A stretch of DNA of 46,884 nt from a bacterium (GTDB lineage Bacteria > Sysuimicrobiota > Sysuimicrobiia > Sysuimicrobiales > Segetimicrobiaceae). The stretch is taken from contig DATGHU010000047.1 in the NCBI GenBank assembly GCA_035307765.1, positions 1-46,884 of the forward strand. Direction: 5' to 3'. Positions 39,666 to 46,703 of the stretch are shown here, in pieces (the first letter of the stretch is position 1; each line of letters begins with the position of its first letter). Below the pieces are notes generated by a model, which saw nothing but the letters and a program-made list of their open reading frames with translations, was not told where the DNA came from and did no database searches. Position numbers and translations under genes: made by a program.

Positions 39666-40475
39666 TCAGCCGACGGCGAGGTCCTCGTCCAGCAGATCCG
39701 TAATGAACATGTGGCCGGGAGCGTGGGTGATCATCAACTCGACCTTGGCCGCCCGCGCAACCGCTTGCGTGGTAACCCCGCACGCCCAGAACACGGGGAC
39801 CTCTTGGGGCTGCATGGACGGCGGGTCGCCAAAATCGGGATGGGCGAGGTCGCGGATGCCGATCGCCCCGGGGTCGCCAATATGCACCGGAGCCCCGTGG
39901 GCCCGCTGGTAGCGTCCCGTCACGAGCGTAGCGCGAGAGATCCCCCCGGGAGGGAGCGGGCGCATGCTCACGACCATGGGCCCGTGCAGCGCTCCGGCGG
40001 GCCGGCAGGGAATCGAGGTGATGTACATCGGCACGTTGCGGCCCCCCTCGATATGCCGGACGGGGAGGCCGGCATGCTGCATTGCCATTTCGAACGTGAA
40101 CGAGCATCCCAGGAGAAACGCCACGAGGTCAGGACGCCAGTACCGCACGATCTCCGTGACCTCGGCTTCCATCTCCCCGCGCCGGTAGATGCGGTACTTG
40201 GGGAGGTCGGTCCGAAGGTCCGCCCCTGGGGCGGCGTACGCCGGCTGAGGGCTGCCCGGGTCGGTGACGTCGATCAGCGGACACGGTTTGGGATTGCGCT
40301 GGCAGAACACCAAAAAATCATAGGCGGTATCCCTGGGAAGCACCACCAGATTGGCTTGAGCAAAACCGGACGCCAATCCCGCCGTCGGCCCCTGCCACTC
40401 CCCGCTGCGCATCCGTTCCCGGAGATCGCGGGGTGCCGCCCCATGAACTGGCGCCAGGTCGCTGATCGGTGACAT
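39666..40475 (-). CDS. DUF1445 putative hydro-lyase (D-glutamate cyclase-like)
   Basis: This 269-residue protein has the family pattern: GPTAGLASGFAQANLVVLP, AYDFLVFCQRNPKPCPLIDV, DLVAFLLGCSFTFE, VTGRYQRAHGAPVHIGDPGAIGI and PVFWACGVTTQ. The mammalian relative DGLUCY turns D-glutamate into 5-oxo-D-proline. Its place before HyuA/HyuB (5-oxoprolinase-like) suggests a joint pathway. ATG 40475 is preferred, because the longer GTG start at 40535 would add 20 residues absent from typical family starts. No promoter was recognised. Confidence 0.87.
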   Translation of the reverse strand: MSPISDLAPVHGAAPRDLRERMRSGEWQGPTAGLASGFAQANLVVLPRDTAYDFLVFCQRNPKPCPLIDVTDPGSPQPAYAAPGADLRTDLPKYRIYRRGEMEAEVTEIVRYWRPDLVAFLLGCSFTFEMAMQHAGLPVRHIEGGRNVPMYITSIPCRPAGALHGPMVVSMRPLPPGGISRATLVTGRYQRAHGAPVHIGDPGAIGIRDLAHPDFGDPPSMQPQEVPVFWACGVTTQAVARAAKVELMITHAPGHMFITDLLDEDLAVG

Positions 40476-40583
40476 GGCCGGAGTATTCCCCGGCGTGAAA
40501 GGGTGATCCTTCGGCCGCTTCGCCCCCACGCGCACGCGGGAGCGGCGTGGTGCCGCCCCCGCGTATCCCTCCGCGCGTGGCGC

Positions 40584-42962
40584 CTACTGGAAGACTTCGG
40601 AGAAATACACCAGGTTCAAGTAGACGAACCGCGGCGTCAGCGGCGGCAGCAGGTTCGCGTTGTTGAAGCTGACGTCGTAGAACCAGCGCCGCGTCGGCGG
40701 CGAGTATCGCTGGTTCGTCCAGAACCCCTGCGGGAACCCGGAGCACGGGTACGTGGGATCGTTCGCGACCGCGATCAGCTGGGTGGCGTCCTCGAAACAG
40801 GTGTGGTCGGGCAGGCCGATGGCCACAAAGGATCCCTGGTACCAGAACTTGACTCCCGACCAGTCCTCGTGGAACCTGGGATAGTTCTCAAGGCCGCCGC
40901 TGTAATTCGACTCCCCGCAGTTGAGCCCGCTGGGCGTGCCCGAGCACCACGTCTGGTCGTTGTTGGCCAGGAACGCGGCGTTCACGATGGTCTGCGTCGC
41001 CGCACAGCCATTCCCGCCGCAACTCACGCCGTCGACCGTCCCCGACTGAGATGTGCTGAGCTCGTCCTGCAGCCGACAGCCGGTCCCGCACACGGGGCCC
41101 CACTGATCCGTATCCATTTGGTAACCGTTGCCGCTCGGCCCGGTGCAGGCCGTTCCACTGCCGACGGCGTTCGGCGAGGCGATCCAGTTGCAGGACAGGA
41201 CGTTCGCCGTATCGGCGACGATGGAGGTCGGTTTCTGCAGCGACGTCGACCCGGTCGGCGGCCAGACCGCGTCGCCGCACGACGCCGGCGAAGTATCGAC
41301 CGGGTTGCTGGGTGGCTGTGGGCAGTTGAAGTTGCCGGTGACGTACGCCGCCTGGTCGCTCGCGAACGTCACCCCCGGATCCGTGCTCCCCCGGCGGGCC
41401 CGCGCCGCGTCGTAGATCCGCACGCCGTAGTTGTCGGCTTTGAATCCTTCGGTGCCGGTAGTATCCTTCACCGACATGAACACGACCAGCCCGTTGTTGG
41501 TCGTCACGTTCGGATTGAAGAAGGGCGTCCCGTTGTTGCGGTTCCACTCCTCAAGCGCCATCCAATCGACGTTCATCATCAAGATGGGTTTGTCTTCGCG
41601 CCAGTTGAAAAACCCCCCGTACCGGTAGTCGTAGCAATAGTTGGACCCGGCCACCCCGACCGGGATGGGCTTGATCTGCGCCCTGGGGCCGCGGTTCACC
41701 GTGCATCCCAGCGTCCCGTTCTTCGGGAAGGCCTGAGTGTAGCTGCTGCTCTTGTTGTAGGCGTCCGTCTCACACGTCGCATCCGTGCTGCAGTTCCAGC
41801 TACCGGTGGGCACATCGGTATACGTGATCGCCCCAGGCTCGGCCTTCATAAAAGTGGTCAGGGCCGTCGTCGCCACGCCGTTGACGCTGCCGTCGACGTT
41901 CAGCACCCGGACCGGGTACAGGCACGGGGCCGTCGTGCTGCCCGGGCACGCCGAGCCGTTCAAGGCCTGGGTGGTTGTCGTGTCGAGCACGAGTCGGAAG
42001 TTGGAGTTCTGCCAGTACGTCCCCTGCGTAGACGAACACCCGGTGATCCACGGCACACAGAGGGTGTTCTTCGGCGTGGGCAACGTGATGTTCTCGATGC
42101 CCGTCGTCACCCGCGCCTGCCCCGGGCTGTTGATCAAGTTGAGATCCCCCGTCGCGATCTGCCGGACGTTCACCTGCGCGCAGCTCGTGCTGCCCGGGGA
42201 ATCCGTGCCGAACACCGCCATGTTCCCGGAGGTGCCGTCCTTCGAGATGTAGACGTTGTTCCAGCTGAGCGACGAAGTGTCTTTGCGACCGCGGAACACG
42301 GTCCCGGCGGTGGTAATCTGGCCGAGGACGTTCATTCCGTCGTTGATCGACGCGCCGCAGTCGTCGGAGTTGAGGTAAATGTTGCCGTTCGCGTGCAGCC
42401 GGCCGTTGACGATCAACGTCGGTCCGGGCAGGTATTCGAGATCCCCGGCGTAGAAGGCCGCGAACTGGAACATCGGGATGAGGTGGGAATCGAACTGGTT
42501 GTTGATGCTCGCCTCCGTGAACCCCAGCGCATTCGTCGAAAAGGAGACCAGGTTGTACTTGTACACCTGCGCGTTCAGCCCGGCAAACGGCGTGTTCGCC
42601 TGCTCCGTCGTCCTGAGCGGCACCTCGGTGCAGGACCCGGCCGATCCGTTGTAGGGGGCGCCCGTGGGGACGCTCAGCTTGTAGGTCACGGTCCGCCCGT
42701 TGAGCGGGAAGGATGTTCCGGTCGTGGTGCAGTTCGTCGGCAGCGCGAAATTCTGCATGGCGTTGAGCACAGTGACCGCCCCGACGTGAATCCCGGCCTC
42801 GGCCGCGTTGAATCCGGCGACGTTCTTCTGGAACGCGGACCGCAGTTCGGTGTTCCGGTCGACCGCGAGGATGATGAAACCGCCTACGGCAACCAGGATG
42901 AAGATCCCCAGCACCACCAAGATCAGTGCGGCGCCAGCCTGCTGATGAGCCAATCGTCTCAT
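40584..42962 (-). CDS. Large PilX/ComZ-like minor pilin
   Basis: This 792-residue protein has a short prepilin-like start (MRRLAHQQAGAALILVVLG..., hydrophobic helix about 10-33, then a RNTELRSAFQKNVAGFNAAEAGI spine). This fits the PilX_N group, which often lacks a strict G/FxxxE site. The remaining ~740 residues are rich in N, T, S, G and cysteine. Cysteine-rich stretches occur around CSTDATCETDAY and CGTGCRLQDE...CGGNGCAAT, so many disulfides are likely outside the cell. It is the last gene of a FimT-PilV-PilW-PilX series; AGGAGG lies seven bases upstream. Length and position resemble Thermus ComZ, a pilus-tip DNA receptor. That role is inference. Confidence 0.82.
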   Translation of the reverse strand: MRRLAHQQAGAALILVVLGIFILVAVGGFIILAVDRNTELRSAFQKNVAGFNAAEAGIHVGAVTVLNAMQNFALPTNCTTTGTSFPLNGRTVTYKLSVPTGAPYNGSAGSCTEVPLRTTEQANTPFAGLNAQVYKYNLVSFSTNALGFTEASINNQFDSHLIPMFQFAAFYAGDLEYLPGPTLIVNGRLHANGNIYLNSDDCGASINDGMNVLGQITTAGTVFRGRKDTSSLSWNNVYISKDGTSGNMAVFGTDSPGSTSCAQVNVRQIATGDLNLINSPGQARVTTGIENITLPTPKNTLCVPWITGCSSTQGTYWQNSNFRLVLDTTTTQALNGSACPGSTTAPCLYPVRVLNVDGSVNGVATTALTTFMKAEPGAITYTDVPTGSWNCSTDATCETDAYNKSSSYTQAFPKNGTLGCTVNRGPRAQIKPIPVGVAGSNYCYDYRYGGFFNWREDKPILMMNVDWMALEEWNRNNGTPFFNPNVTTNNGLVVFMSVKDTTGTEGFKADNYGVRIYDAARARRGSTDPGVTFASDQAAYVTGNFNCPQPPSNPVDTSPASCGDAVWPPTGSTSLQKPTSIVADTANVLSCNWIASPNAVGSGTACTGPSGNGYQMDTDQWGPVCGTGCRLQDELSTSQSGTVDGVSCGGNGCAATQTIVNAAFLANNDQTWCSGTPSGLNCGESNYSGGLENYPRFHEDWSGVKFWYQGSFVAIGLPDHTCFEDATQLIAVANDPTYPCSGFPQGFWTNQRYSPPTRRWFYDVSFNNANLLPPLTPRFVYLNLVYFSEVFQ

Positions 42963-42972
42963 GAATGTCCTC

Positions 42973-43956
42973 CTACAAACGTCCGGGATTCTGGGGGAAC
43001 GTCAAGTTCCGGGGAGAGATCTCAAACGACGCGGGCTCGTGCAACAATCGATCGGCGCTGCCCGACGCCCGCACCGTGATCGTCGACTGCGCATCCACGT
43101 TGGCAACGATCGCCCGAACCAGGTTCCAATCGCCGGCGAGCGACGGGGCCAACCCGGGCAGGTTGACCACGCACAGGTTGGGCGTCCCTCCCGTCTGCGC
43201 GTTGCAGGCGGATCCATTGGGATTACCGGGATCGTTCCACAAACGGTTGAGGACGTATTGAATCTTGAAACTATCGACCCCCTTGACCAGGGGCAGCTGG
43301 CTACCGCCCAGCAGCTGGACGGTCAGGGTAGGGATATTGTTGCACCCGGCGCAGGAGGTGCTGACCGCGAACTTGCGCTGGTCGGCGCCGGTGACCTGGC
43401 TGGTATTCCGGGGGTAGCTGCCGGTGAGAGAGGGCCCCTTGAGGGTATCAACGTTGACGGTTCCCGGAGCTCCGACGACGACCGTCGAGATGAGAAAGAA
43501 CTCCCCCGCCCCGGCGTTGGAGATGAACGCCCACTGCCCGCCGGTGAAACCCGTGCTGTCGGAGACGGTGATGGACGAGCACCCGTTGCAATTATTGGTC
43601 ACGACGTTGGCGTTTCCGCAGGTGGGGTTCGCGCTGACCGTGATCGTGTCGTTCGTCCCATTCGTTCCGGCCAGCGGGACGAAGTTGGGAGCGAGCGACT
43701 GGTTCAGGCTGTTCACCGGCATGCAGGCGCCCGCGATCCGCACGTCGCGGTTCAGCGCCTCGATCGTCGACCGCAGACTCTGCTGTACCTGCGTCCGCGC
43801 TTGATGTTCGGACCAGGCCCGGGTAACGAACACGAACCCCGTGCCGACCCCAAAAACGACCAGCGACGCAATCGACAGCGCCACGAGGACCTCACTGAGC
43901 GTGAATCCCCGGACTCCTCGACTACTGGAGCGGGCTGATAATGGTCTGCGTAACAT
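42973..43956 (-). CDS. PilW-like minor pilin
   Basis: This 327-residue prepilin has cleavage motif RGVRGFTLSEVLVALSIASL (after the glycine near 17) and a hydrophobic helix, followed by a large outer domain with paired cysteines (CGNANVVTNNCNGC, CAGCNN). ATG 43956 lies 35 bases inside the pilV frame, with GGAGGG upstream. The longer upstream frame has no such SD. It is probably part of a pilus-tip complex with the neighbouring pilins. Confidence 0.87.
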   Translation of the reverse strand: MLRRPLSARSSSRGVRGFTLSEVLVALSIASLVVFGVGTGFVFVTRAWSEHQARTQVQQSLRSTIEALNRDVRIAGACMPVNSLNQSLAPNFVPLAGTNGTNDTITVSANPTCGNANVVTNNCNGCSSITVSDSTGFTGGQWAFISNAGAGEFFLISTVVVGAPGTVNVDTLKGPSLTGSYPRNTSQVTGADQRKFAVSTSCAGCNNIPTLTVQLLGGSQLPLVKGVDSFKIQYVLNRLWNDPGNPNGSACNAQTGGTPNLCVVNLPGLAPSLAGDWNLVRAIVANVDAQSTITVRASGSADRLLHEPASFEISPRNLTFPQNPGRL

Positions 43957-44344
43957 AGCTTTTCCCTCCACTCCAGCTCTGTCCCCCATTCCAGGTGACG
44001 GTGACAATGATCGTCAACATGTTCGCCTGTGGGGTATTCGCCTGCAGGGACGTCTGCACGTTATACGTCTGCGACCCCACCGTGGGCGTGGTGGTGATCG
44101 TTTGGGTCCCTCCGGCACCGACGACGGCGTTCAAAAGATTGATGAAGTTCTGGTCCCGATACACCTCCACCGTCTGTTGGGCCAAGGAGGCAGCATCGCT
44201 CTGCTGCCGGGCCAACGCAACCTGCCCGGTCGCCATCACGACGAGTTGGGCGGTCGCGATCAAACCCACCCCCAAGAGAAACGCCGCAACGATTACCTCG
44301 AGTAAGGTAAAGCCGCCCTCGGATCGTCGGCACCGCATGCTCAT
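43922..44344 (-). CDS. PilV-like minor pilin
   Basis: This 140-residue prepilin has a clear type III signal GGFTLLEVIVAAFLLGVGL (cleavage after the glycines at about 10-11, E5 present). A T/Q/N-rich outer part follows. Its ATG overlaps the stop of the FimT-like gene (ATGA), and it overlaps pilW at its end, so all are tightly coupled. Confidence 0.9.
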   Translation of the reverse strand: MSMRCRRSEGGFTLLEVIVAAFLLGVGLIATAQLVVMATGQVALARQQSDAASLAQQTVEVYRDQNFINLLNAVVGAGGTQTITTTPTVGSQTYNVQTSLQANTPQANMLTIIVTVTWNGGQSWSGGKSYVTQTIISPLQ

Positions 44345-44859
44345 TGCTTATCCACCATCCCCACCGGATTCACCGTGACGAGCTTGGTCCAATGAGTCGA
44401 CAGCGTATTGCCGTGGCGGGTATCGTGCAGGGTAAACGTCACCGCTGTTGCCGGGGCCGCGAGGTACCCGCGGGTGTTGAACTCTGCGGCGGTCCCGATG
44501 GTCAGGGCGTCAAAAACGATATTGGGCCGCAAGCTAATCGTGCGCTCCGTCGCCCAAGCGGTACACGAACTGCCGAAGGCGGTGCACCGCTCGATCAGGT
44601 ACTGGGAGGCCACCGTGGCCTTCAGGTGATAGTGCAGAGAACGGCTCGTCGCCAATTCGCGGGTCAGCTGGAGGTTGTTTTGAAGGTCCTGCACGTCCGC
44701 GGCGAGGGCGGTGGGGCTGGAGTTGAATATTGGCCAGGCGATGGCAATCGCCGCCGCCACGAGCGCCAGGGCGACGATGATCTCCAAGAGACTAAAGCCG
44801 TCGGATGCACCGGCCGTTCGGGCAATCACGACCCCAAACCCCTCCCGTTGTGACACCAT
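44341..44859 (-). CDS. FimT/GspH-like minor pilin
   Basis: This 172-residue prepilin has the signal SDGFSLLEIIVALALVAAAIAI (cleavage after the glycine near 22, E5 present). The helix continues as ADVQDLQNNLQLTRELATSRS, typical of GspH/FimT. ATG 44859 is chosen because AAGGGG is about 9 bases upstream and the longer frame would give an overlong leader. FimT in other bacteria binds DNA in natural transformation. It is the first gene of the operon. The upstream region holds a hairpin and repeats. Confidence 0.87.
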   Translation of the reverse strand: MVSQREGFGVVIARTAGASDGFSLLEIIVALALVAAAIAIAWPIFNSSPTALAADVQDLQNNLQLTRELATSRSLHYHLKATVASQYLIERCTAFGSSCTAWATERTISLRPNIVFDALTIGTAAEFNTRGYLAAPATAVTFTLHDTRHGNTLSTHWTKLVTVNPVGMVDKQ

Positions 44860-45343: not shown

Positions 45344-45988
45344 TCAGCGTTTTCCGCGCGGAAGCGAAGTCAGGAACGGGTTGGTCCGCCGCTCCTCCCC
45401 GATCGTCGTCTCAGGGCCGTGGCCTGGGTAGCAAACGGTCGGGTCGGGCAGGGGCAGCAATACCCGGGTGATTGAGGCCAGCAAGGTTGCCGCGTCAGCC
45501 CCCGGCAGATCTGTACGGCCGATACTTCCGGCGAACAGCGTGTCGCCGACAAAAACCAGCCCGTCCCCCAGCAGGCACACGCCCCCGGGACTGTGGCCGG
45601 GTGTGTGGCGCACCGTGACCGCCAGTTCCCCCACCCGAAGTTGATCCCCCTCCGCGAGCCACCTGTCCGGGACGGGCGCGGGCGGAAGGTCGAGCCCAAA
45701 CATCGCCTTCGCCCGAGCCGGACCGTGCGTGAGAATATCGCGTTCCGCCTCATGAATCCAGAACGGCGCCCCCGTCGACCGGCGCACCACGTCGACCGCG
45801 AGGATATGATCGAAGTGCCCATGCGTATTGACCAACGCGAGAGGGCGCGCACCCAACCGCCGGAGCGCCTCGAGAATCCGGTCCGGTTCGTCGCCGGGGT
45901 CGATCACGAAAACCTCGCGGGTCGTGTCGTCGCCGAAGATGTAGCAATTGGCTCCTATCGGACCGACGGGGAACCCCTCGAGAATCAT
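45344..45988 (-). CDS. Metallo-beta-lactamase-fold hydrolase (glyoxalase II-like)
   Basis: This 214-residue protein has the metal motif THGHFDH (55-61), HTPGHSPGG, VGDTLFAGSIGRTD and the final GHGPETTIGEERRTNPFL. It matches YcbL/glyoxalase II-like enzymes that hydrolyse thioesters. ATG 45988 (MILEGFPVGPIGANCYI) fits the family start, although the SD is weak. Confidence 0.9.
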   Translation of the reverse strand: MILEGFPVGPIGANCYIFGDDTTREVFVIDPGDEPDRILEALRRLGARPLALVNTHGHFDHILAVDVVRRSTGAPFWIHEAERDILTHGPARAKAMFGLDLPPAPVPDRWLAEGDQLRVGELAVTVRHTPGHSPGGVCLLGDGLVFVGDTLFAGSIGRTDLPGADAATLLASITRVLLPLPDPTVCYPGHGPETTIGEERRTNPFLTSLPRGKR

Positions 45989-46108
45989 AGTGGCGCGGAA
46001 CCCGGCAGCGTCAAGCCGGGCCCCGCGCTCTCGACAAGACAGATACGACTGGAACGCGGCACAGGAACACACCCGTCCCGCACAACGACCTCGCCCCCAC
46101 CCGTCCGG

Positions 46109-46651
46109 TCAGGTTCGAGCGGTCACCTTTGCCGTATTCAGCACCTTGATTATTTCGCGGCAGAACGCGGGGAGATCGGGCGGGGTGCGTGATGAGATCA
46201 GGTTCCCATCAACGACCACTTCTTTGTCAACGTAATGCGCGCCAGCGTTGATGACATCGTCCTTGACGGCACTGACGCAGGTCATTGTCTTCCCCTTGAG
46301 AATCCCGGCGGAGATGGGCACCCAGGCGGCGTGGCAGATTGACGCGACGACCTTGCCCGATTGAAATGCCTCCCGAACAAGCCGGAGCATGGCTTGGTGG
46401 CGCCGCATCCGGTCGGGGGCATATCCTCCGGGGACGATGACCGCATCAAAATCCGCGGCGTGGGCGTCGTCCATCGATAGATCGGCCTTGGCCGGATAGC
46501 CTTCCTTGCTCTTGTAGGACTCCCCCGCCTTCGGCCCCACGATCGTCACATGGGCACCAGCCTCCCGAAGACGCAGCACAGGGTACCAGAGTTCAAGGTT
46601 CTCATAGTAATCTTCCGCAAGCACCGCCACACGCTTACCGGTGAGCTCCAT
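46109..46651 (-). CDS. DJ-1/PfpI family protein
   Basis: This 180-residue protein of the PfpI/YhbO type has the nucleophile elbow ASICHAAW with C106 and H107, and the acidic partner in AEDYYENLE (about 12-20). FDAVIVPGGYAPD and KTMTCVSAVKDDVINAGA are also typical. Relatives act in stress defence as glyoxalases, deglycases (debated) or proteases. The SD GGGAGG precedes ATG 46651. It has its own promoter at 46704-46733. Confidence 0.9.
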   Translation of the reverse strand: MELTGKRVAVLAEDYYENLELWYPVLRLREAGAHVTIVGPKAGESYKSKEGYPAKADLSMDDAHAADFDAVIVPGGYAPDRMRRHQAMLRLVREAFQSGKVVASICHAAWVPISAGILKGKTMTCVSAVKDDVINAGAHYVDKEVVVDGNLISSRTPPDLPAFCREIIKVLNTAKVTART

Positions 46652-46703
46652 CGCTGTCCCTCCCTGATGAAAGAAGTTCTGATGCATCCTTGCGGTCAAA
46701 TTC

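What the first reader, a model, noticed from the sequence alone, without database searches (positions are those of the whole stretch)
40584..44859. Minor-pilin operon with Thermus pilA1-pilA2-pilA3-comZ-like layout and a 792-residue cysteine-rich tip candidate
Gene order FimT/GspH, PilV, PilW, then a very large PilX-type protein matches the Thermus thermophilus competence pilins, where ComZ is a tip-located DNA receptor. Here the last protein is larger and rich in N/T/S/C. Three coding overlaps or near-overlaps show tight coupling. The major pilin and motor genes are not in the window. A DNA-uptake or adhesion tip complex is inferred.
Basis: partly seen in the sequence, partly recalled or inferred. 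Interest (0 to 1): 0.6.

Follow-up and report, generated by a model that had tools for sequence, protein, structure and literature searches.

The report
Patchy, plasmid-borne type IV pilus-tip cassette
These four neighbouring genes very probably build the tip of a bacterial pilus, ending in one unusually large protein related to a little-understood cyanobacterial protein (HpsA); the same set turns up patchily in distant bacteria and on plasmids, and in this organism it probably serves sticking to surfaces or sugars, not DNA uptake.

Summary
Four tightly coupled minus-strand genes (44859-40584) encode GspH/FimT-, PilV- and PilW-like pilins and a 792-aa, 24-cysteine PilX-type protein lacking Glu5. 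The order is the generic FimU-PilV-PilW-PilX (GspHIJK) order, not specific to Thermus. By sequence the giant protein is not ComZ (sequence searches of solved structures missed it); it shares two conserved islands with cyanobacterial HpsA. [quoted passage not shown] The genome has type IV pilus motors and one secretin but no comEC, which is missing from all 12 genomes of the family and present in 27 of 31 others of the phylum; ComEC-dependent DNA uptake is unlikely here. The four-gene set, with a C-terminal PRN motif in its PilW, recurs in Binatota and on seven Thermus, Deinococcus and Picosynechococcus plasmids. It occurs in 5 of 43 phylum genomes, and its flanking genes are adjacent without it in relatives. 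Best reading: an accessory, possibly exchangeable pilus-tip cassette, probably adhesive. Partly supported; new variant of a known kind.

The parts
44341..44859 (-). FimT/GspH-like minor pilin, 172 aa, prepilin motif DG|FSLLE
   Evidence: N_methyl over cut-off; TIGR01708 gspH 1.5e-6, under cut-off; matches cassette FimT of relatives, not the paralogs on C3/C23
43922..44344 (-). PilV/GspI-like minor pilin, 140 aa, GG|FTLLE
   Evidence: N_methyl; TIGR02523 PilV 1.5e-8, under cut-off; 4-bp overlap with FimT
42973..43956 (-). PilW/GspJ-like minor pilin, 327 aa, RG|FTLSE, with C-terminal PRN motif
   Evidence: N_methyl; PRN near the C-terminus in 15 of 15 cassette PilW and 0 of 2 paralogs; A6 profile hits Thermus Tt1219 5g23 at 0.0012
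40584..42962 (-). Giant PilX/GspK-position pilin, 792 aa, no Glu5, 24 Cys; two HpsA islands (about residues 151-199 and the C-terminal region)
   Evidence: NF038301 HpsA 2.2e-13, 48.8 bits against cut-off 400; end-to-end homologs; predicted pilin fold with insertion 160-780; ComZ Z 9.2
39666..40535 (-). Flanking D-glutamate cyclase (PF07286); one side of the junction that is empty in relatives
   Evidence: Pfam 6.1e-65; directly follows the MBL hydrolase in G023, G024 and G025
45344..46072 (-). Flanking metallo-beta-lactamase-fold hydrolase, other side of the junction (DJ-1/PfpI gene 46109-46699 beyond it)
   Evidence: Pfam PF00753 2.2e-32; DJ-1 PF01965 1.7e-54; junction comparison

Best explanation
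An accessory type IV pilus tip cassette. FimT, PilV and PilW form the H-I-J part of a priming complex and cap it with the giant PilX-position subunit, which goes in first because it lacks Glu5 and carries a domain too large for the shaft. The chromosomally encoded PilB/PilT/PilC/secretin machine, encoded elsewhere, would then assemble the major pilin beneath this tip, so that swapping the cassette changes what the same pilus binds. The outer, Cys-rich domain is inserted between the last two strands of the pilin fold, as in ComZ, and is most likely an adhesin for surfaces or polysaccharide, as the HpsA relationship suggests. Shown: the genes, the coupling, the conserved four-gene set, its patchy distribution and plasmid occurrence, the machine in the genome, and the lack of comEC. 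Inferred: tip location, disulfides, use of the resident machine, adhesive ligand, exchangeability.
For: Four prepilin-type genes with tight spacing. Glu5 is present in the first three and absent in the fourth (sequence). Predicted pilin fold with 160-780 inserted before the last strand, with ComZ, minor pilins and pseudopilins as best neighbours. T2SSE and secretin genes, PilB- and PilT-like ones among them, are in the genome. The same set recurs in Binatota and in 7 of 72,556 plasmid records. The family beyond its N-terminus is in 5 of 43 phylum genomes. The site is empty in three relatives. Other minor-pilin clusters exist in the genome. comEC is absent. HpsA similarity was found in 10 of 10 giant members scanned with NCBIfam (the partial HR32 one only at 0.0029).
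Against: Model confidence is low (pLDDT 47 and 42) and Foldseek itself gave nothing under 0.001, so the fold of the outer domain is unknown. No ligand is known. The giant-pilin tree keeps the phyla apart, so recent transfer between phyla is not shown and patchiness may be loss. HpsA family scores are far under the curated cut-off. No expression or pilus data exist.
Confidence: 0.6

Rival explanations
1. A competence tip: the giant pilin is a ComZ-like DNA receptor that feeds DNA uptake.
For: ComZ is the top structural neighbour and shares the predicted insertion site (topology from PMC6561018). PilA2 6qvf is also among the neighbours. Cassettes occur in Thermus and Deinococcus. The two other-family genomes with the giant pilin, G005 and G037, do have comEC.
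Against: comEC was not found in this genome or in any of 12 family members, although two other genomes of the genus keep the giant pilin. No sequence similarity to ComZ. Window protein net charge is -12.
Confidence: 0.13
2. A pseudopilus for polysaccharide secretion or processing, as first proposed for Hps, with the pilins working like type II secretion pseudopilins.
For: HpsA islands; hpsA lies beside pseudopilin genes hpsB-D in Nostoc (PMC4284469 and PMC10581220 passages); PilW matches HpsC weakly.
Against: The five nearest genes are not glycosyltransferases or exporters (HyuA named by reading, not by a scan). Neighbours differ in every lineage looked at. The only secretin found lies on another contig. 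PMC12288463 states that HPS secretion does not itself propel cells (passage).
Confidence: 0.17
3. The core priming complex needed for all pili in this organism, ordinary apart from a large PilX.
For: The order is the core FimU-PilV-PilW-PilX order; in G037 (HR32) it directly follows a PilD-like and an AMIN/secretin-type gene (named by reading).
Against: Not found beyond the N-terminus in 38 of 43 phylum genomes, though some of these are incomplete. This genome has two further minor-pilin clusters, one (C23) with a DUF4900 giant PilX.
Confidence: 0.1

Closest known systems
HpsA with HpsB-D, hormogonium polysaccharide locus (NF038301, NF038303, NF038304; Nostoc punctiforme)
   Same: Two ordered conserved islands of the giant protein; it sits with three small pseudopilins
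   Different: 48.8 bits against a cut-off of 400; 792 aa against a profile of 1503; no hps glycosyltransferases among the nearest genes; different phylum
ComZ with PilA1-PilA3 of Thermus thermophilus HB27 (6QVI, 6QVF)
   Same: Three small pilins plus one giant; predicted insertion between penultimate and last strand; best structural neighbour
   Different: No detectable sequence similarity; comEC missing here; the outer domain fold is not established; DNA binding untested
[quoted passage not shown]
   Same: Gene order; several alternative tip clusters per genome in Myxococcus (PMC13190605 passages)
   Different: The large domain is built into the PilX-type pilin; no PilY1 gene in the operon
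T2SS GspHIJK
   Same: H-I-J-K order; tip GspK lacks Glu5 (recalled)
   Different: GspK's insertion is helical and lies between strands 3 and 4 (PMC6561018)
DUF4900 giant PilX (C23 cluster of the same genome)
   Same: Large PilX-type protein beside PilV-, PilW- and FimT-like genes
   Different: Different outer domain; DUF4900 is present in 22 of 43 phylum genomes

Membership tests
Core minor-pilin (FimU-PilV-PilW-PilX / GspHIJK) operon | Four adjacent prepilin-type genes in H-I-J-K order | tested here: met
   the fourth lacks a Pfam prepilin hit but has a G|AALILVV segment, and its T. oshimai homolog passes PilX_N
Core minor-pilin (FimU-PilV-PilW-PilX / GspHIJK) operon | Glu5 in the first three, none in the last | tested here: met
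   DG|FSLLE, GG|FTLLE, RG|FTLSE, AG|AALIL
Core minor-pilin (FimU-PilV-PilW-PilX / GspHIJK) operon | Type IV pilus motors and secretin in the genome | tested here: met
   9 T2SSE places, 1 secretin; PilB- and PilT-like domains on C23
Core minor-pilin (FimU-PilV-PilW-PilX / GspHIJK) operon | PilY1 partner | tested here: inconclusive
   No PF05567 in the genome, but no control genome rang either
ComZ | Sequence homology to ComZ | tested here: not met
   Profiles A3 and A7 and a T. oshimai member against the PDB at E up to 10 do not list 6qvi; HMMER filters can lose weak matches
ComZ | Pilin fold with a large domain between penultimate and last strand | tested here: inconclusive
   Predicted so, low confidence; VIA-align 6qvi_A Z 9.2, rmsd 3.2, 106 residues, model 40-792 against chain 5-526; last strand not reproduced in the Binatota model
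ComZ | Works in a genome with the ComEC uptake channel | tested here: not met
   0 of 12 family genomes, 27 of 31 others, 10 of 14 controls
ComZ | Binds DNA | not testable with these tools
   Needs purified protein
ComZ | Beta-solenoid outer domain | tested here: inconclusive
   Outer domain modelled largely at pLDDT under 50
HpsA (NF038301) | Score over the curated cut-off (400 bits) | tested here: not met
   48.8 bits; best relative 83.6
HpsA (NF038301) | Conserved islands at profile about 276-336 and 1322-1467 | tested here: met
   the partial HR32 protein shows only the first, at 0.0029
HpsA (NF038301) | Beside pseudopilins and hps glycosyltransferases | tested here: inconclusive
   Pseudopilins yes; nearest genes are hydantoinase A/B, D-Glu cyclase, MBL hydrolase and DJ-1; the rest of the genome was not searched for Hps enzymes

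The most novel reading that the evidence does not exclude
A mobile plug-in pilus tip: a self-contained four-gene cassette carried between chromosomes and plasmids of several phyla, which reprograms the resident type IV pilus by replacing its tip, and of which cyanobacterial HpsA is a member. HpsA would then be a pilus-tip adhesin for the polysaccharide on which hormogonia glide, not a polysaccharide-synthesis enzyme. Strain-to-strain turnover of the Thermus competence pilin locus (HB8 and HB27 about 20% identical, PMC5131608) would be the same process.
Probability: 0.3. Interest if true: 0.72.

Novelty: new variant of a known kind. Interest (0 to 1): 0.5.

Why it matters
How one pilus machine gains many functions is an open question, and HpsA was described as of unknown function (PMC4284469 passage). 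A tip subunit family shared by Sysuimicrobiota, Binatota, Deinococcota and cyanobacteria, found on plasmids with its three partner pilins and no annotated machine beside it, makes two things testable: whether pilus tips are traded as cassettes, and whether HpsA is a tip adhesin. Plasmid copies in culturable Thermus and Deinococcus give an experimental entry.

Tried and rejected
A giant 2505-aa version in G032: rejected, the frame runs through a stretch of N. Viral carriers: 14 pattern matches in viral contigs, none confirmed as a relative. Outer-domain fold: both AlphaFold jobs stayed under mean pLDDT 50; Foldseek best E 0.47, so no fold is claimed for residues 160-780. Recent transfer between phyla: the 14-row tree keeps Sysuimicrobiota (100/100), Binatota (100/100) and Deinococcota (89/95) apart (the split KNUC1210 plasmid-3 copy, the Bin56 fragments and G033's partial copies were left out); only T. 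oshimai grouping with two Deinococcus and apart from T. brockianus hints at exchange. PilY1 search: no control rang, so it is uninformative. DNA-uptake reading: kept as a rival only, because of comEC. N/T/S richness as a special mark: not unusual. The script's +5 residue is misplaced for G033, G005 and HR32, where it chose an earlier glycine, and it gave none for the two Thermus rows; I read T. oshimai, G033, G005 and HR32 from the alignments instead; the annotated T. brockianus start lies inside the helix. Papers were seen as passages (PMC4284469, PMC10581220, PMC12288463, PMC13190605, PMC5131608), as abstract, passages and sections 6 and 7 (PMC6561018), or in search listings only (all others). 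Searches listed no paper that I recognised from title or abstract start as describing this cassette or HpsA as a tip pilin; the library lacks most subscription journals.
Full report
OBSERVATION. On the minus strand, 44859 to 40584, lie four genes with spacings of -4, -35 and +10 bp: a GspH/FimT-like pilin (172 aa), a PilV-like pilin (140 aa), a PilW-like pilin (327 aa) and a 792-aa protein with AGGAGG before its ATG. The first three pass the Pfam prepilin cut-off. The fourth has a PilX-style start, AG|AALILVVLGIF...GFNAAEAG, with no Glu at position 5. It has no Pfam family, but islands similar to HpsA in NCBIfam (E 2.2e-13, 48.8 bits against a cut-off of 400). It has 24 cysteines. N+T+S is 26.4%, ordinary for its relatives (19-31%); the cysteine count is not (5-22 in the other proteins compared).

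THE GENOME. The window lies on contig C47 of a 3.82-Mb, 96% complete genome. Related contigs are named 'Terrabacteria group bacterium ANGP1' and 'Bacterium HR32'; I place them in the GTDB phylum Sysuimicrobiota from recall. The genome has nine T2SSE places, including PilB- and PilT-like genes on C23, and one secretin. Other minor-pilin clusters lie on C23 and C3; the C23 cluster has its own 688-aa PilX-type protein with DUF4900, a domain seen in 22 of 43 phylum genomes. So the machine exists, and this operon is one of several tip sets.

THE DNA-UPTAKE TEST. Motors are present. The Competence family (PF03772) gave no match in this genome, while 10 of 14 controls rang. Over the phylum it is missing from all 12 genomes of the window's family and present in 27 of the 31 others. 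The giant pilin persists in two more genomes of that ComEC-less family. A role in ComEC-dependent transformation is therefore unlikely here. G005 and G037, from other families, have both the giant pilin and comEC, so the trait could differ there.

DISTRIBUTION. A single-sequence search found the protein in 5 of 43 phylum genomes. A 12-row profile found 19 of 43, of which 14 matched only the N-terminal 60-95 positions. Some of the 38 other genomes are incomplete. Named relatives are two Sysuimicrobiota-type MAGs and three Binatota contigs (six loci; phylum Binatota partly from recall). Tblastn of plasmid records gave the same 7 of 72,556 with four different queries: two Thermus, four Deinococcus records, one Picosynechococcus. 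In all seven the giant gene is preceded by three small pilin genes (the T. brockianus set runs across the record start). In Deinococcus sp. KNUC1210 plasmid 3 the giant gene is annotated as two pieces. No motor or major pilin is annotated next to these plasmid sets in the stretches fetched, though the plasmid gene table is incomplete. Transposase genes lie near three of the seven (T. brockianus both sides, T. oshimai, D. wulumuqiensis).

A CASSETTE, NOT FOUR GENERIC PILINS. The giant proteins align end to end over four phyla, with 54 invariant columns in 12 rows. The window's FimT, PilV and PilW match cassette homologs at 1e-3 and not the C3 or C23 paralogs of the same genome; the match does not reach every relative (FimT finds no Deinococcota row), and two weak crossings occur elsewhere (C3 FimT with a Binatota FimT at 3.1e-4, C23 PilV with a Deinococcus PilV at 0.001). 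All 15 cassette PilW examined end in a PRN motif and both paralogs lack it; two of the 15 are near-copies from one genome. Among 206 called ORFs of 12 loci, 6 had PRN in the last 30 residues, and all 6 were cassette PilW. Spacings -4, -35 to -38, +9 to +13 recur in the window, G005 and T. oshimai; other sets differ. The order differs in one Binatota contig (L054), where the giant gene comes first.

INSERTION SITE. In three genomes of another genus of the family (G023, G024, G025) the MBL hydrolase and the D-glutamate cyclase that flank the operon are adjacent, with aligned ends 25-62 bp apart. In four more genomes (G026-G029) other ORFs lie between them; in G033 the cassette does, over two contigs. 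In G030, of the same genus, the cyclase has other neighbours; G031 and G032 cannot be judged. The direction of change, gain or loss, is not known. In the other lineages looked at the cassette has different neighbours. In the same genus the giant gene is duplicated: G032 has a second start directly after the first copy, and G033's contigs hold at least two distinct copies.

STRUCTURE. The AlphaFold model is weak (pLDDT 47, 11 rows), but it shows a helix (2-70), four strands to residue 160, an insertion, and a final strand at 782-791. Foldseek gave nothing below 0.001. The VIA-align second look ranks ComZ first (6qvi_A, Z 9.2, rmsd 3.2, 106 residues, model 40-792 against chain 5-526), then an S. 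sanguinis minor pilin (7.6), EpsI/EpsJ (6.6) and Thermus PilA2 (6.4). Z around 7-8 is common for unmatched models, so this is modest support. [quoted passage not shown] The Binatota model (pLDDT 42) again gives a pilin domain (PilA2 9.0, EpsI/EpsJ 8.0, ComZ 8.0) but no final strand. By sequence no profile or single query reached ComZ; the PilW profile reaches Thermus Tt1219 weakly (0.0012).

INTERPRETATION. The best-supported reading is an accessory tip complex assembled by the resident machine. The reported pieces of HpsA biology fit an adhesive tip. hpsA lies beside pseudopilin genes and HpsA was of unknown function (PMC4284469 passage; gene table of PMC10581220). The polysaccharide is thought to be the surface to which pili attach (PMC12288463 passage). 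Myxococcus offers a precedent for several tip clusters per genome and for horizontal gain of a tip adhesin (PMC13190605 passages). In Thermus thermophilus the competence pilin locus differs between strains to about 20% identity (PMC5131608 passage), as expected if tips turn over. That the cassette is mobile is inferred from plasmids, transposases and patchiness; the tree shows phylum-level clades, so any transfer between phyla is old or unsampled.

VERDICT. Observation confirmed; interpretation partly supported. New variant of a known kind: a minor-pilin tip complex whose adhesin-like domain is built into the PilX-position pilin and whose closest named sequence relative is HpsA.

Noticed in passing
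L030:16059-17543 (G000 contig C3): The PilW-position gene of a second pilin cluster is about 494 aa, with an inserted region weakly like a 3-keto-disaccharide hydrolase (PF06439 5.5e-4): another enlarged tip pilin.
   Followed up: partly
L030:14103-15134: Two nearly identical major-type pilins (GFTFMEVLAVVMLLGILALVALPNYF) in tandem, next to PilB- and PilC-like genes.
   Followed up: no
L027:11325-14867 (C23): Third minor-pilin cluster with a 688-aa DUF4900 PilX-type protein; DUF4900 occurs in 22 of 43 phylum genomes.
   Followed up: partly
Family f1 of the phylum (G000, G023-G033): comEC is missing from all 12 genomes but present in 27 of 31 others: a family-wide loss of the DNA-uptake channel.
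   Followed up: yes
L036, L045, L046, L037: The giant pilin gene is tandemly duplicated in G032 and present in at least two distinct copies in G033, with contigs breaking at the copies.
   Followed up: partly
L028:4232-6637: A PilB-like ATPase with an N-terminal TPR region fused to MshEN and T2SSE domains.
   Followed up: no
L056:8001-10228: The giant pilin of Bacterium HR30 is read in two overlapping frames; frameshift or assembly error.
   Followed up: no
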